From Lacipirellula parvula (lineage in GTDB: Bacteria > Planctomycetota > Planctomycetia > Pirellulales > Lacipirellulaceae): DNA of 64,000 nucleotides. The notes under the pieces were generated by a model. That model saw only the letters and a list, made by a program, of their open reading frames with translations. It made no database searches and was not told where the DNA came from. The stretch covers positions 1,612,001 to 1,676,000 of the forward strand of contig NZ_AP021861.1 in assembly GCF_009177095.1 (NCBI RefSeq), written 5' to 3'. A program made the position numbers and the translations under genes. Positions 48,105-56,851 of the stretch are shown here, in pieces (positions within the stretch are counted from its first letter, which is position 1; each line of letters opens with the position of its first letter).

Positions 48105-48180
48105 ATGAATGACGAATGACGAAACCCGAATGACGAATGGAAGACGCAAGCGAATGGCATTCGTCATTCGTCATGTCATT
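48105..48180. repeat. Palindromic repeat, family H (AATGACGAATGACGAA type) overlapping a stop codon
   Basis: The left part has ATGAATGACGAATGACGAA and the right part its complement. The right arm (48159-48180) contains the stop codon of the TlpA-like gene (48176-48178). Confidence 0.78.
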
Positions 48181-50689
48181 TGGGAGTTTCCGCCTTGGCG
48201 GCTCCCTCTCCCAGCTTCCAGGCCTTCAGGGATTCCGGCGTGGAGACCAACAGTATTGCAGCCTCGGGCGTGTTTGTCAGGGAGAGGCCGGTGAGGGGCT
48301 GGGCGTGGCGGAATTGGTCGATCAATTGGCCCTGCGGGTCGAGCCAGACGATCGTGCCGTCGGGGGCGGCGACCATCCAGGCGGGGCGGTTGCCGGGGAG
48401 GGTGACGCTTTGGATTCGCTCGACCTGGTGGGTGTATTCGCCGATCGGCAGCTTGTACTGCCAGCGAACTTCGCCGTCGGGGTCGAAGCCGACGACGTTG
48501 TACACGCCGGGGGCCTCGACGCTCAGGCCGCAGCAACGGGCGGCGTCGCCTTCGGCTTGCGGGCTGATGGCAAGGTGCATGATCTCGCGAAGGCCGACGA
48601 CGATTTCTGGCAGCGGTTTGCCATCGGGGCCGAGGACGAAAACGAGGCCGCGGTCGCTGGTGCCCCAGAGGTTGCGCGTCTGGGGGGCTGCGTCCTGCTC
48701 TTCCTCTTCGATGACGGGCGGGTTGCTCAGGTCCACGGGAGCGACGGCCAGCTGCACGACTTCGTTGAATGAACGAATCGCCCATTTACGTTTGCCGTCG
48801 AGGCCGACGCCTTGCACGCCGACGCCGCCCCGGTAGCCGACGTAGAGCGTTGGCTCGGCATCGGGAGTCAGGGCGGCTAGCTGGACGTCGGCGATGCCTG
48901 GATTCTTGTCGTTGGGGAAAGCTAGCGTCTGTTTCCATTCCTTATCGAACAGGTACAGCTTCTGCCAGCCAACGCCGCTGGCGGCGATGAGGCGGTTGCC
49001 CGCTTGATCGACGGTGGTGCGGAGGAAGCCATTGCCCGTCGCCTCGTTGCCGGCGATGTCGTGCCGCGCGACGAGCTTGCCGGCGGGGTCGAGTTCCACG
49101 ATCGCCTGCCCACCGTCGACCGCCAGGATGCGCGGCGCGGCGGCGTTGTTATCGTTGAGAATGAGGAAGTTGCCTGGCTTGGCAACGTCGGTCGCGGCGG
49201 CTTTCCACAGCTCGGTCGCGTTAAGTTGCTGGGGTAGCTCTTGCTTGCCGAACTCGGGGCGGGCGACCTCGACGCTGATCACGTCGCCGCTCGCCGCGGC
49301 GGCTCGGATGTCGGCCTCGTACTTGGCGGTCAGCTGTTGGTGCTCGTCGCGGGCTTCGGCGGCGAGATCGGCGCCATCGACGACCTTCGAGATCACGTTA
49401 GCGAGCTGCTGTGGATCACGGTGTTGCCCGATGTGGAAGTATTGCAGCTTGCCGGTTCCATCGAGAAGCATGAGCGTCGGGGTGCCGGCGACCTGCAGCG
49501 CTTCGGAAGTCACCTCTGGATCGCGGAGGATTGGCATAGAGCCCCCCCAATTCTTGAGCGTCCGTTCGGCGGTGTCGTTGGTCACGCGCTCGGGGGCGTC
49601 CATGCTTACGGCGTAAAAGGCAAACTTGTCGTTGTCCTTCAACTGCTGATAGACCTTCTCGAGCTCGGGCGTGTGGGCCTTGCAGGGCGCACAATCGGCT
49701 TGCCAGAAGTCCAGCAGCACCGTCTTCCCTTTGAGGGAATCGCGCGACACCTTCTCGCCGTCAAGCGTTTCGAAGCTGAACTCCGCCAAGTCTTCGCCGA
49801 GGCGCTCCGGCGGCGCTTGCGGCGGGGAGGGAATCAGTCGCTTCACCAAGAACTCGCCTTCGGCCGGCTCTTTCAAGAACGTGCTGCGGTCGATGTCTGG
49901 ATCGAAGGTCGGGTCTTTGAAATCAATCCAGACCGAAAGATTCGAATAGCGGTCGTCCGGATCGAAGTCGCGACGGGCGTCGCCGAGCGGCAATTCCATG
50001 CGGCGCAGGGCGTAGGTTTTGGCGTCGATCCAGAAGATCCGCTTGCCGTTTGCGCTCGTGCTGACGATGCGATGGCAGTTGTTACCTTCGAGCGGCTTGT
50101 CGTCGAGATAGCGCGGGGCTTCGTCGTTCGGGAAGACGAGCGCTTCGTCGTCGACGTTCAGCAGCATCGCGAGTTGCGGAAAGACGTCGCTGATCGAGCG
50201 ATTGTTGAAGATCTCGCGGATCATCGGATCTGGCAGGAAGTTTTCCGTGCTCAGCTTCGTGGGGGTCTTCGTTTCCAGAATCTGCCGCGGCAACTCGGCG
50301 GCCGAGGCGCGGGTCACGCTGCGGCTGGAGGCGATGTCGAAACCGCGGGCTGGACCTTCGCCGGGGATCGCTTCATTGAAGCGTAGGCGTACGAAATTCG
50401 GCCGGCGGAAGGCGAGCGACATTTCGAAGAAGGGGAGCTCGCGCTCGACCCCTTCGCCGCGGTAGGCATACGACTGCACGTAGGTGGCGTGGTCGGTGTA
50501 GCTGCTCGCCTTCTGGTAGGCGGCAAGCATTTTTTCGGCGATCTCGGCGCCGCGGGCCTCGGCGGCGGCCGATTCTTCGCTCACGGCGGGGTCCGAGGAA
50601 CTGTTGCAGCCGGCGGTCAGCGTGGCGGCAAGGGCCAATAGCAGCAGAAAGCCGCGAAGCGGCAGGGGGGAGAAGCCGGGAGCATCCAT
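48176..50689 (-). CDS. Lipoprotein with LolA-like, thioredoxin-like (TlpA) and beta-propeller domains
   Basis: 837 residues. The N-terminus has a lipoprotein signal (GFLLLLALAATLTAGC, lipobox Cys at about 28). A DUF2092/LolA-like beta domain follows (about 50-290). A thioredoxin-like domain comes next (about 300-440), with LLDFWQADCAPCKAHTPELE holding a CxxC active site and VAGTPTLMLLDGTGKLQY. A C-terminal beta-propeller-like region (about 530-830) repeats LAVDGGQAIVELDPAGKL-type blades. It is probably anchored in the outer or inner membrane with the redox domain in the periplasm, where it may reduce or form disulfides. Partner substrates are unknown. Its stop lies inside repeat H. Confidence 0.9.
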   Translation of the reverse strand: MDAPGFSPLPLRGFLLLLALAATLTAGCNSSSDPAVSEESAAAEARGAEIAEKMLAAYQKASSYTDHATYVQSYAYRGEGVERELPFFEMSLAFRRPNFVRLRFNEAIPGEGPARGFDIASSRSVTRASAAELPRQILETKTPTKLSTENFLPDPMIREIFNNRSISDVFPQLAMLLNVDDEALVFPNDEAPRYLDDKPLEGNNCHRIVSTSANGKRIFWIDAKTYALRRMELPLGDARRDFDPDDRYSNLSVWIDFKDPTFDPDIDRSTFLKEPAEGEFLVKRLIPSPPQAPPERLGEDLAEFSFETLDGEKVSRDSLKGKTVLLDFWQADCAPCKAHTPELEKVYQQLKDNDKFAFYAVSMDAPERVTNDTAERTLKNWGGSMPILRDPEVTSEALQVAGTPTLMLLDGTGKLQYFHIGQHRDPQQLANVISKVVDGADLAAEARDEHQQLTAKYEADIRAAAASGDVISVEVARPEFGKQELPQQLNATELWKAAATDVAKPGNFLILNDNNAAAPRILAVDGGQAIVELDPAGKLVARHDIAGNEATGNGFLRTTVDQAGNRLIAASGVGWQKLYLFDKEWKQTLAFPNDKNPGIADVQLAALTPDAEPTLYVGYRGGVGVQGVGLDGKRKWAIRSFNEVVQLAVAPVDLSNPPVIEEEEQDAAPQTRNLWGTSDRGLVFVLGPDGKPLPEIVVGLREIMHLAISPQAEGDAARCCGLSVEAPGVYNVVGFDPDGEVRWQYKLPIGEYTHQVERIQSVTLPGNRPAWMVAAPDGTIVWLDPQGQLIDQFRHAQPLTGLSLTNTPEAAILLVSTPESLKAWKLGEGAAKAETPK

Positions 50690-53531: not shown

Positions 53532-53858
53532 ATTCTCTTCTTCTCCCCCTGCAGAGCCAGGTCGGCTGTGCAATCGTTTCGACCCGCGGCAGCGTCAGGA
53601 CGCGCGCGTTCGTTGTGGGTAGAAAATCCGGACTAGGTTGGGTTTTTCGCTCAAGCAGTTTGGTGAAACAGGTGAAGGGTTGCCGCTAGCACCGACGATA
53701 TCACGAGTAACTCACGTGAGTCTTTGTCGCGTGACACGGCCTGCAACGCGTTTGAATCGCATTCGGCGCCATTCCTCCGAGACGGGGCGCGAGCGAGACG
53801 CAACTGACAGAGCCGACGCGCGACTGTATCTCCCCCACCAGTATTCAGGAGCCTCCCG

Positions 53859-54389
53859 ATGAAACGTTACCTGTTGTCGACGCTGGGCGTCGCTATGGCG
53901 TTGGCTTTCGCTTCCAACGCTCATGCCTGGGGCATGGGCGGCTGCGGTTGCGCTGCCGAGCCGAGCTGCTGCTACGCCGAGCCGACCTGCGGCTGCGAGC
54001 CGTCGTGTTGCGACCCATGTTGTGCGCCGAAGAAGTGCTGCATCTTCTCCCGCCTGAAGGCCAAACTGGCCGCCAAGCACTGCTGTGCTCCGGTCTGCGG
54101 TTGCGAAGCCAGCTGCGGCTGTGCGGTTGAGCCGAGCTGCGGTTGCGCCGCCGAACCGTCGTGCGGTTGCGCTGCTCCCTCGTGCGGCTGCGAAGCCAGC
54201 TGCGGTTGCGAAGCCTCGTGCTGCGACGACTGCTGCTCGCCCTGCAAGAAGCACTGCATCTTCGCTCGCATTAAGGCTCGTTGGGCTGCCAAGCACGCTT
54301 GCTGCGCCCCGGTCTGCGGTTGCGAAGCCAGCTGCGGCTGCGAAGCCTCGTGCGGTTGCGAAGCTGCCCCCAGCTGCGGCTGCAACTGA
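53859..54389 (+). CDS. Secreted cysteine-rich repeat protein (42 cysteines in 176 residues)
   Basis: AGGAG (53847) lies 7 bases before the ATG. A clear signal peptide (LLSTLGVAMALAFASNAHA) ends at residue 23. The mature 153 residues contain 42 Cys, arranged as CC, CGC and CC-x2-CC units joined by EPS, EAS and AAEPS. Two longer modules are repeats of each other: one with KKCCIFSRLKAKLAAKHCC and one with KKHCIFARIKARWAAKHACC, both followed by APVCGCEASCGC. The helix-like basic linker in each is the only non-cysteine stretch. Such a pattern could form a disulfide-locked coat, a metal binder or an extracellular structural protein. No family was recognised. A strong terminator follows. Confidence 0.88.
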   Translation: MKRYLLSTLGVAMALAFASNAHAWGMGGCGCAAEPSCCYAEPTCGCEPSCCDPCCAPKKCCIFSRLKAKLAAKHCCAPVCGCEASCGCAVEPSCGCAAEPSCGCAAPSCGCEASCGCEASCCDDCCSPCKKHCIFARIKARWAAKHACCAPVCGCEASCGCEASCGCEAAPSCGCN

Positions 54390-54446
54390 GCTAAACACGC
54401 CATCATTGGGCGTTCTAGCTTAGTGCTGTGACAAGGTGAAAATCGA

Positions 54447-54485
54447 AAACGGCTCCCTGCGATGTAGGCAGGGGGCCGTTTTTTT
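54447..54485 (+). terminator. Intrinsic terminator after the cysteine-rich gene
   Basis: AAACGGCTCCCTGC (54447-54460) pairs with GCAGGGGGCCGTTT around a short loop and runs into TTTTTT. Confidence 0.9.
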
Positions 54486-54516: not shown

Positions 54517-54951
54517 TCAGTTGCTGGGGGCGGGCGTTGGGGGCGTCTTGGCGGGCTTCTCTTCCGCTTTCCTAAAGCCGGCTTCGATGAGTTGCTGGTA
54601 GCCCGGTTTGAGGACTTTGACTTCGTAGCCTCGCTCTTCGAGGTACTCGGCGGCGCGGGTGGCGCGGATGCCGACGGCGCAGTGGATGTAGTAGCTGCCC
54701 TTCTTGGGGAGCGCTTTGGCGAGTTGCTTCTCGTCCAACTCGTCGGTGAGCGACGTGACGGGCAGGAAGATCGCGCCGGCGACGTGGCCCTTGTCCCATT
54801 CTTTCTTGGTGCGGACGTCGACGAGTTTCGCTTTCTTCTCGTCGATCGCCTGTTTGACTTCTTTGAGGGAGTCTTCGGTGAACTCGATCGCGCGGGCCGC
54901 GGGCACGACGAGGGCGAGCAGCAAGGCGGCGAGCGTCAGGCGGGGGAGCAT
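54517..54951 (-). CDS. Exported rhodanese-like protein
   Basis: 144 residues from the ATG at 54951. A signal peptide (LTLAALLLALVVPAARA) precedes a single rhodanese domain: KLVDVRTKKEWDKGHVAGAIFLP, then the active-site loop YYIHCAVGIRATRAAEYLEERGYEVKVL with the catalytic Cys in CAVGIR. Rhodaneses move sulfane sulfur or bind anions. A periplasmic single-domain form may act in sulfur chemistry or repair of secreted cysteines; the neighbouring cysteine-rich protein makes that worth testing, though the genes are convergent. The C-terminus is Pro/Lys-rich. Confidence 0.92.
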   Translation of the reverse strand: MLPRLTLAALLLALVVPAARAIEFTEDSLKEVKQAIDEKKAKLVDVRTKKEWDKGHVAGAIFLPVTSLTDELDEKQLAKALPKKGSYYIHCAVGIRATRAAEYLEERGYEVKVLKPGYQQLIEAGFRKAEEKPAKTPPTPAPSN

Positions 54952-55135
54952 GTCGGTTGTTCCGGTGGATATGCTGGCACAGGTTGGCGGCAACTCATTC
55001 TAACCGGCGCCTTGGCGGGGCCAATTGGTCGGCGAATGCCGCGATTGCTGGACGCGGGCGTCGTCGTCGGGGAGAATCAGTTGCGGAACGGGCTCGATAC
55101 TTCACTTCGAAGAACTGTCACGAGCGAGGCATATC

Positions 55136-56851
55136 ATGCGAACGATCTGGCGATCGGCGGGAACCTGTGCGCTGCTGGCGGCTGCTTGGCTGACTGCCTG
55201 CGGCGAACGTGGCGCTCTGGCCCAGCAGGCGGCGCCGCTGCCGGGGGGGAATCTTCCCGGGGCGAACCAAGGCGCCAACCGGGCGGGCGGCAATCAAGGG
55301 CAGGCGGTCAACGGTTTCGTTGGCGCCGGCAATATCTTCGCTCCGGGCAACGGCGCCAACGGCGGGGCCGCATCGGCCGACTTCGATTCGCTCATCGATC
55401 TCATCACCTCCACCGTCGACGTTGAGAGTTGGCAAGAGAATGGAACGGGGCAGGGGGAGATCCAGCCGTTTCCGAATGGCGTGTACGCCGACGCCGATGG
55501 AGCACTGTTAGTTCGTGCCGGAGGGGAACGCGCGGCGCTCGCTGCGGTTCGCGCGCATGGAGTTCCGCGCTCCCAGCCCGCAGCGAAGACGCTCGGAATT
55601 GAGGCGGTCGTCGAGGCGAAAGCGATCGCAGAGCGTCACTTCACGGAGACTGCTGAGGCTGCACGGCAATCGAGCCCGCTGCGTTACGTTTCGCTCTCGA
55701 AGCTCGAGGCGGCGATCGCCCAGCGGCAGGAGCGGCATCAACCACTCGAACCGGCGATGCTCTCGCTGGCCGGCCTGCAGCGCGTGAGTTTTGTGCTTGT
55801 GTACCCGGAGACGGGGGATCTGGTCCTCGCAGGCCCGGCGGGCAATTGGGCTGGCGCTTCAACGGGCGGGCTCGTTTCGGTCGAGACCGGTCGGCCGATT
55901 GTGCGGCTCGACGATTTGCTCACGCTCTGGCGGCGGCAGCGGACGGAAAAGTCGGCGGCGTTCGGCTGTTCGATCGTGCCGCGGCAAGAGGCGCTGGCGA
56001 ACACGCAGGCGTTCCTAGACGCCTCCGCTGCGAAGCCGCTGGAGCCGAGCGGTCGGCGGAAGTGGCTTGAAGAGCTGCGCAGCACGCTCGGTATTCAAGA
56101 CGTCGAATACTATAACATCGACGAAGGTTCGCGGATCGCGACGCTGCTGCTGGCGGCCGACTATCACATGAAGCTGATCGGCATGGGCCTCGCCGACGGC
56201 GTGCCGGGGGTGAAGAGCTATCTCGCCACGGTGCGAAATGGCGCCGATGGTTCGCCGCCGCCGATGGCGGTGCTACGGTGGTGGTTCTCGATGCCCGCGT
56301 CGACCGTCGAGGCGAGCGACGCGCATGATGCATTCGCGCTACCGGAGCGGTGTCTGTGCGTGCTCAGCGAAAACGAGATGCTGGCCGCTCGCGGACAGCG
56401 GGTGCATACGGGGCAGTCGGACGATCTCAATCGGAAGTTTGCTGAGTCGTTCACGCAGGAATTCGCGGCGTTGTCCGCGAAGTACTCCGTGTATGGCGAA
56501 CTGGAGCGGGTATTTGAACTAGCGCTCGCGCTCGCGGTCATCCAACGCGAGGGGCTGACGGAGAAGGTTGGTTGGACGCCGACGCTGTTGCTTGACGAGC
56601 AACGGCTGCGGTTGCCGAGTTCGCCCGCGCCGGCGGCGGTGGAGACGGTGATCAATCACCGCATCATCGGCGGCCGGCAAATCATCGCCGGCGTCAGCGG
56701 TGGCGTGTGGGGCGACGGCGGCAAGACGTTGCAAGTATCCGTCGCGACAAGCGACCGCGCCACCGCACTGGCATCAGTCAAAAAACCGATTCAAAAAGCC
56801 GCCGCCGGTGGCGGCGCTCAGCCCGAGCAGATCGCATGGTGGTGGGATTGA
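55136..56851 (+). CDS. DUF1598 lipoprotein with a segment shared with the secretin
   Basis: 571 residues from the ATG at 55136, with GAGG upstream. A lipoprotein-type signal (SAGTCALLAAAWLTACGE) precedes a Gly/Asn/Ala-rich linker. Residues about 79-115 contain AASADFDSLIDLI and, further on, ENGTGQGEIQPFP. Both strings, and their spacing, are almost the same as in the secretin at 6298. The DUF1598 domain follows (about 165-300): YVSLSKLEAAIAQR, LSLAGLQRVSFVLVYPETGD, LVLAGPAGNW and TGRPIVRLDDLL. The remaining half is unclassified. The family is planctomycete-specific. A role on the outer membrane near the pilus/secretion machinery is plausible but unproven. Confidence 0.88.
   Translation: MRTIWRSAGTCALLAAAWLTACGERGALAQQAAPLPGGNLPGANQGANRAGGNQGQAVNGFVGAGNIFAPGNGANGGAASADFDSLIDLITSTVDVESWQENGTGQGEIQPFPNGVYADADGALLVRAGGERAALAAVRAHGVPRSQPAAKTLGIEAVVEAKAIAERHFTETAEAARQSSPLRYVSLSKLEAAIAQRQERHQPLEPAMLSLAGLQRVSFVLVYPETGDLVLAGPAGNWAGASTGGLVSVETGRPIVRLDDLLTLWRRQRTEKSAAFGCSIVPRQEALANTQAFLDASAAKPLEPSGRRKWLEELRSTLGIQDVEYYNIDEGSRIATLLLAADYHMKLIGMGLADGVPGVKSYLATVRNGADGSPPPMAVLRWWFSMPASTVEASDAHDAFALPERCLCVLSENEMLAARGQRVHTGQSDDLNRKFAESFTQEFAALSAKYSVYGELERVFELALALAVIQREGLTEKVGWTPTLLLDEQRLRLPSSPAPAAVETVINHRIIGGRQIIAGVSGGVWGDGGKTLQVSVATSDRATALASVKKPIQKAAAGGGAQPEQIAWWWD

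What the first reader, a model, noticed from the sequence alone, without database searches (positions are those of the whole stretch)
53859..54389. Secreted protein made almost entirely of cysteine modules
The mature protein has 42 cysteines in about 153 residues (27%), in CC, CGC and CC-x2-CC units, with two near-identical modules separated by CGC repeats. Each module carries a conserved basic helix-like linker (IFSRLKAKLAAKH / IFARIKARWAAKH). The signal peptide, strong ribosome binding site and strong terminator indicate a well-expressed secreted product. Nothing comparable was recognised. It could be a disulfide-locked coat or holdfast component, a metal binder, or a redox buffer.
Basis: partly seen in the sequence, partly recalled or inferred. 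Interest (0 to 1): 0.78.

Follow-up and report, generated by a model that had tools for sequence, protein, structure and literature searches.

The report
Planctomycete secreted cysteine-repeat wall protein
This bacterium encodes a small exported protein that is more than a quarter cysteine, and many relatives keep the same design, so it is probably a disulfide-bonded building block of the protein-rich planctomycete cell wall, although no study of it was found.

Summary
Window 53859-54389 (+) encodes 176 aa: a signal-peptide-like start, then a 153-aa chain with 42 Cys. The frame is under purifying selection (dN/dS about 0.15-0.2), Cys are kept, and the SD-ATG start and a strong terminator recur in relatives. 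Matches: 37 of 43 genomes of its family; 178 of 296 of its order by profile (paralogues count there); 9 of 150 of a second order of the class, weakly; 0 of 50 outside the class. Shared neighbours support vertical descent in many genera. No Pfam, NCBIfam or PHROGs model matches, and no solved structure significantly. The closest known things are the Cys-rich YTV wall proteins of planctomycetes: no YTV repeat here, but same class, and some YTV tails (4 of 25) carry the same Cys motif. Best explanation: a small secreted cross-linker of the disulfide-bonded, protein-rich envelope. Export, disulfides, location and function are inferred, not shown. The family is far from universal in the class, and amphipathic linkers are not supported. 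New variant of a known kind.

The parts
53847..53851 (+). Shine-Dalgarno AGGAG, 7 nt before the ATG
   Evidence: GGAG precedes the chosen ATG in every relative listed except L029 (GGAA)
53859..54389 (+). Cys-repeat secreted protein gene, 176 aa plus stop
   Evidence: conservation
53859..53927 (+). signal peptide, residues 1-23, predicted cleavage AHA|W
   Evidence: read from the sequence and from the A-x-A site in relatives by rule; no dedicated predictor
54006..54122 (+). module 1, residues 50-88: CC-x2-CC, basic linker, CC/CGC run
54042..54080 (+). basic Cys-free linker 1, residues 62-74 IFSRLKAKLAAKH, predicted helix
   Evidence: helix 60-75, low confidence
54123..54218 (+). spacer of E-[PA]-S-C-G-C repeats between the modules
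54219..54341 (+). module 2, residues 121-161
   Evidence: 32 of 41 aligned columns identical to module 1
54258..54296 (+). basic Cys-free linker 2, residues 134-146 IFARIKARWAAKH, predicted helix
   Evidence: helix 132-145, low confidence
54445..54483 (+). intrinsic terminator: 16-bp stem, 7-nt loop, then T-run
   Evidence: stem plus T-run in 27 of 30 family loci
55025..56851 (+). recurrent downstream neighbour, DUF1598 protein (linkage marker, not part of the protein; start codon uncertain)

Best explanation
A small exported structural protein of the planctomycete envelope. Shown: it is a real, conserved gene with a signal-peptide-like N-terminus and its own terminator, found in the samples searched only in two orders of the class Planctomycetia. 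Inferred: after export its E-P-S-C-G-C / CC runs, which have no confidently predicted fold, oxidise into intra- and intermolecular disulfides. It thereby acts as a flexible cross-linker between itself, the large Cys-rich YTV wall proteins and perhaps other Cys-bearing envelope proteins. The two matched basic linkers would contact a polyanionic or membrane surface, or each other.
For: Purifying selection on the frame with Cys retention. Cys 22-33% in 34 mature relatives while repeat number and length vary, 134-179 aa: this suits a cross-linking chain better than one fixed fold. GGAG site and dedicated terminator in 27 of 30 family loci. Nested distribution with YTV: all 43 family genomes have YTV; the own genome and 4 of 4 chosen genomes of the second order that match this family have YTV, while 2 of 50 genomes outside the class have one weak YTV match each, and this family has 0 of the same 50. 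The E-[PA]-[ST]-C-G-C motif recurs in the own genome's YTV C-terminal tail and before its DUF6666 domain. Literature, seen as passages: walls suggested to be mainly protein, Cys-rich YTV proteins in wall preparations (PMC8567305; its section 21); YTV proteins named as major constituents of walls isolated by boiling in 10% SDS (PMC5287468); 'a protein sacculus with disulfide bonds' (PMC2754498); a YTV protein among P. limnophila essential genes (PMC10632474).
Against: No localisation, proteomic, disulfide or knockout data for this family were found. It is not universal: 72 of 205 high-quality order genomes and 141 of 150 genomes of the second order gave no match, though searches score only part of the candidates. 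YTV was checked in only 4 of the 9 matching second-order genomes and in none of the 141 others. Motif sharing with YTV tails is narrow: 4 of 25 complete tails, three of the own genus and one of genus g6, and one own-genus tail (L119) lacks it; short Cys motifs can converge. No VKOR in the own genome, and the one DSBA-family match shows no signal peptide by eye, so the oxidation route is unknown; DsbB was not searched. Cys number is odd in 12 of 34, which is inconclusive. Linkers are not more amphipathic than shuffles: 1 of 58 segments below 0.05. 6 of 43 family genomes gave no single-sequence match, two of them high quality; with the profile 42 of 43 match, but paralogues count there. PMC5287468 also notes that peptidoglycan has been reported in planctomycete walls, so protein is not the only wall material.
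Confidence: 0.55

Rival explanations
1. Secreted metal-binding (metallothionein-like) protein: CC and C-x-C clusters chelate Zn, Cu or Cd at the cell surface.
For: Cys density and C-x-C/CC spacing resemble metallothioneins (recalled); 12 C-x-C and 8 CC in the own protein; no confident fold predicted.
Against: Signal-peptide-like start, whereas metallothioneins are cytosolic (recalled); no Pfam or NCBIfam match; the six flanking genes scanned carry no metal-transport family.
Confidence: 0.17
2. Holdfast, fibre or extracellular-matrix component rather than wall, with disulfide-bonded chains and basic linkers that bind polysaccharide.
For: Secreted-looking, repetitive, basic linkers; planctomycetes have holdfasts and matrix or fibres (abstracts in the listing; passage).
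Against: No known holdfast or exopolysaccharide family among the six neighbours scanned. Presence in 37 of 43 family genomes suggests a housekeeping role, which is weak evidence.
Confidence: 0.15
3. Thiol redox buffer or sulfur store in the periplasm.
For: Rhodanese gene next door at 54517-54993 and a redoxin-domain gene upstream at 48176-50689.
Against: Among the loci scanned the rhodanese was found only in L001, L003/L032 and L004/L033, i.e. three genomes of the own genus. Thiols would be expected to oxidise outside the cytoplasm.
Confidence: 0.05
4. Cationic antimicrobial or competition protein.
For: Linkers such as GLLSGLKGLFHRH resemble cationic peptides by eye (recalled).
Against: The whole mature protein is net negative in 28 of 34 relatives (range +3 to -12); hydrophobic moments are not above shuffles; shared neighbours point to vertical descent.
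Confidence: 0.04

Closest known systems
YTV-domain cysteine-rich cell wall proteins of planctomycetes (Pfam PF07639)
   Same: Signal-peptide-like start, Cys-rich, repetitive, largely of class Planctomycetia; 4 of 25 complete YTV tails (own genus and genus g6) carry the same [ED]-P-[ST]-C-G-C type motif.
   Different: No YTV repeat in this protein; about three times shorter; Cys 27% of the mature chain against about 13% (77 of 576 in L053); CC/CGC runs and basic linkers instead of YTVCKP repeats.
Chlamydial OmcA/OmcB cysteine-rich outer membrane proteins
   Same: Cys-rich envelope proteins in a related phylum, part of a complex believed to substitute for peptidoglycan as structural element (PMC2811131, passages).
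   Different: No profile match in Pfam or NCBIfam at E <= 10; no lipobox seen here, while OmcA is a lipoprotein.
Metallothioneins
   Same: Cys fraction and CC/C-x-C clusters (recalled).
   Different: Signal-peptide-like start; no family match; basic linkers.
DUF6666 protein of the same genome
   Same: Carries a C-G-C / E-P-G-C-G stretch before its domain.
   Different: The main body is a DUF6666 domain of about 280 residues; whether it is an outer-membrane barrel is my guess and untested.

Membership tests
YTV wall proteins (PF07639) | YTV repeats above the Pfam cut-off | tested here: not met
   No Pfam family at E <= 10 for P0001; the own genome's YTV protein does match
YTV wall proteins (PF07639) | Located in the SDS-insoluble wall | not testable with these tools
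   No proteome naming this family was seen
Chlamydial OmcA/OmcB | Profile match to the family | tested here: not met
   0 families in Pfam and NCBIfam at E <= 10
Chlamydial OmcA/OmcB | Disulfide cross-linked envelope complex (recalled) | not testable with these tools
   needs non-reducing biochemistry
Metallothionein | Cys-rich with C-x-C and CC clusters (recalled) | tested here: met
Metallothionein | Cytosolic, no signal peptide (recalled) | tested here: not met
   hydrophobic N-terminus plus A-x-A site in 34 relatives inspected by rule, not by a predictor (the rule misplaced the cut in L006)
Metallothionein | Binds metal | not testable with these tools
   needs ICP-MS
This Cys-repeat family (unnamed) | Signal peptide, Cys runs, two basic Cys-free linkers | tested here: met
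   the window protein has two; of 34 relatives including it 27 show exactly two Cys-free basic segments of 10 aa or more, 4 show one, 3 none

The most novel reading that the evidence does not exclude
A previously unnamed set of small secreted Cys-repeat proteins is the cross-linker of the planctomycete protein sacculus: the E-P-S-C-G-C motif is a shared joining module also grafted onto YTV proteins and other envelope proteins, and the two basic linkers evolve as a matched pair because they pair with each other or with one common ligand.
Probability: 0.25. Interest if true: 0.75.

Novelty: new variant of a known kind. Interest (0 to 1): 0.5.

Why it matters
The make-up of the planctomycete wall (protein versus peptidoglycan) is a long-standing question, and the YTV family is the protein component that the papers seen here name. 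A second conserved Cys-rich family with signal-peptide-like starts from the same class gives a concrete gene to delete and a protein to look for. It could have been overlooked because such chains yield few tryptic peptides (inference).

Tried and rejected
Structure: AlphaFold on the 16-row alignment gave mean pLDDT 42.5 and pTM 0.17, with helices only in the two linkers and the signal peptide; too poor for a fold search, so none was run. Solved structures: one phmmer hit at E 0.42, taken as chance; the profile found none at 0.01.

Amphipathic linkers: not supported; 1 of 58 segments had a hydrophobic moment above all but 5% of its shuffles.

Cys parity: 22 even, 12 odd of 34 related proteins; inconclusive.

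Recent gene conversion as the sole reason for matched linkers: within-protein linker similarity was 0.74 against 0.34 between proteins, in 25 two-linker proteins of 30. In the 20 of those 25 with at least 8 identities (5 dropped), 225 of 268 aligned residues were identical and 59 of those 225 had different codons (pooled dN 0.13, dS 0.49). So synonymous divergence exists, but older conversion or duplication is not excluded.

Rhodanese as a general partner: rejected. Promoter scan: 0 sigma-70-like sites. No paper naming this family appeared in the listings; these show at most 20 papers each from an open-licence library. Five papers were opened, for passages or one section only. Hieu 2008, Liesack 1986, Konig 1984 and Mahajan 2020 were seen only as cited in those passages.

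Limits: profile searches scored only part of the first-look candidates per genome (at most 11, 8, 23), so absences are soft. Short repetitive Cys sequences can inflate profile scores; shared neighbours are the independent check, and they are missing for part of the matches. The PADLOC library and the phage, plasmid, viral and metagenome collections were not searched.

Full report
What is there. Window 53859-54389 (+) is a 176-aa ORF with ATG and AGGAG 7 nt upstream. After a predicted cleavage at AHA|W the chain has 153 residues: 42 Cys, 26 Ala, 15 Gly, 13 Ser, 12 Pro, 11 Glu. It consists of E-[PA]-S-C-G-C type repeats around two modules (residues 50-88 and 121-161, 32 of 41 columns identical), each holding a 13-residue basic Cys-free linker. 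A 16-bp hairpin with a T-run starts 55 nt after the stop.

Is it a gene? Yes. Against the two nearest relatives dN/dS is 0.060/0.399 and 0.061/0.316; differences by codon position are 10, 11, 37 and 12, 9, 30; 40 of 42 and 40 of 41 aligned Cys are kept. A stem below -12 kcal/mol before a T-run lies within 220 nt of the stop in 27 of 30 family loci; the other 3 had no T-run by my rule.

Whose is it? 

Distribution. Single sequence: 37 of 43 family genomes at E <= 1e-3, own genome included; the pattern scan of the named collection gave 15 loci, whose titles are all planctomycete. Profile A1 (16 rows): 178 of 296 order genomes at 1e-6, 133 of 205 of the high-quality ones and 42 of 43 of the own family, where paralogues also count; 10 of 392 in a phylum-wide sample, all 10 of the own order (the number of order members in that sample is not given). 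In 150 genomes of another order of the class, 9 match at 1e-3. Of the eight loci returned, seven (L144-L150) read as hydrophobic start, AGLF-type opening, Cys runs and a basic segment; the eighth, L151, is a hit at a contig end that my ORF rule did not resolve. In 50 genomes outside the class, 0 match (the tool warns that an empty answer alone shows nothing, but the same profile rings in the other calls).

Neighbours. In 14 of 30 family loci (plus or minus 1.5 kb) the DUF1598 gene lies downstream in the same direction. Of the other 16, examined over up to 15 kb (less where contigs end), one has DUF1598, seven have the VTT-domain gene, two have only upstream neighbours (L158, L166) and six have none of the six genes tested, so 24 of 30 share at least one. 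In another family of the order (f15), DUF1598 is next to the best hit in 6 of 8 genomes (L082-L087 yes; L088, L090 no), and it is also next to the hit in L089 of family f12. But it is present in only 3 of 14 f15 stretches taken later (L169-L182; one genome, G114, is in both sets), and in 3 of these 14 my Cys filter found no ORF. In 6 stretches of the second order (L183-L188) none of the six genes was found. So orthology is well supported in some genera and uncertain in others, above all in the second order.

Paralogues. The own genome has two further loci among profile hits: a 268-aa protein ending in PIPPAPVADPAARIAQPRKVVSASFVR (L049), with relatives L042, L044 and L045; and a 134-aa protein with an Ala/Pro tail (L002), with look-alikes L091 and L096 in f15. 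Two hits at E 0.1-0.3 are the DUF6666 protein and the YTV protein. The pattern for E-[PA]-[ST]-C-G-C has 16 hits in the genome against 3 for the reversed pattern; 13 of 16 fall in four genes (this one 7, L049 4, YTV 1, DUF6666 1) and 3 in short frames taken as chance.

Link to YTV. All 43 family genomes carry YTV. Of 30 YTV loci, 25 had a complete 3' end; 4 of these tails carry the motif, three of the own genus and one of g6, while one own-genus tail (L119) does not. In one search YTV rang in the own genome, in 4 of 4 chosen second-order genomes and, weakly, in 2 of 50 genomes outside the class. YTV was not searched in the rest of the order or class samples, so the overlap is nested rather than proven equal. 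Published passages put Cys-rich YTV proteins in wall preparations, the two highest-scoring ones in T. immobilis (PMC8567305), and name YTV proteins as major in SDS-boiled G. obscuriglobus walls, while noting peptidoglycan reports too (PMC5287468); a YTV protein is among the essential genes of P. limnophila (PMC10632474). These papers were seen as passages or one section, not whole.

Mechanism. Shown: coding, conservation, architecture, lineage limits in the samples. Inferred: export, oxidation, cross-linking, partners. Variable repeat number at a high Cys fraction (22-33%, 34 proteins) and lack of a confidently predicted fold suit a cross-linking chain. The matched linkers (0.74 within, 0.34 between) are an unexplained regularity; 59 of 225 identical residues differing in codon hint at selection without excluding old gene conversion. 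The missing VKOR and the DSBA-family protein without a visible signal peptide leave the oxidant unknown. Absence from 72 of 205 high-quality order genomes and 141 of 150 second-order genomes at the thresholds used means that it cannot be a universal wall part unless diverged relatives were missed.

Verdict. The gene and its oddity are real and conserved; the kind (Cys-rich planctomycete envelope protein) is known through YTV; the family itself matches no Pfam, NCBIfam or PHROGs model.

Noticed in passing
G000:C1 about 1508712-1510166 (-), L053/L102/L120: YTV wall protein (PF07639) whose C-terminus ends CEPSCGCAEEPSCGAADSCCN, the same motif as the window protein.
   Followed up: partly
G000:C1 about 2212240-2212398 (-), L052/L110: DUF6666 protein with a Cys-rich stretch (EATCGC...CEPGCG) just before the domain.
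   Followed up: partly
L049 (own genome, G000:C1:275904-276557), L042, L044, L045: Larger Cys-repeat paralogue, 268 aa in the own genome, with a Cys-free tail of the type PIPPxPxADPxAxI...SFVR; function of the tail unknown.
   Followed up: no
window 55025-56851 (+): DUF1598 protein is a recurrent downstream neighbour in several families of the order; role unknown.
   Followed up: partly
window 54517-54993 (-): Secreted-looking rhodanese between the Cys gene and DUF1598, seen only in three genomes of the own genus among the loci scanned.
   Followed up: partly
window 48176-50689 (-): 837-aa protein with a lipoprotein-like start and a redoxin (AhpC-TSA) domain upstream of the locus.
   Followed up: no
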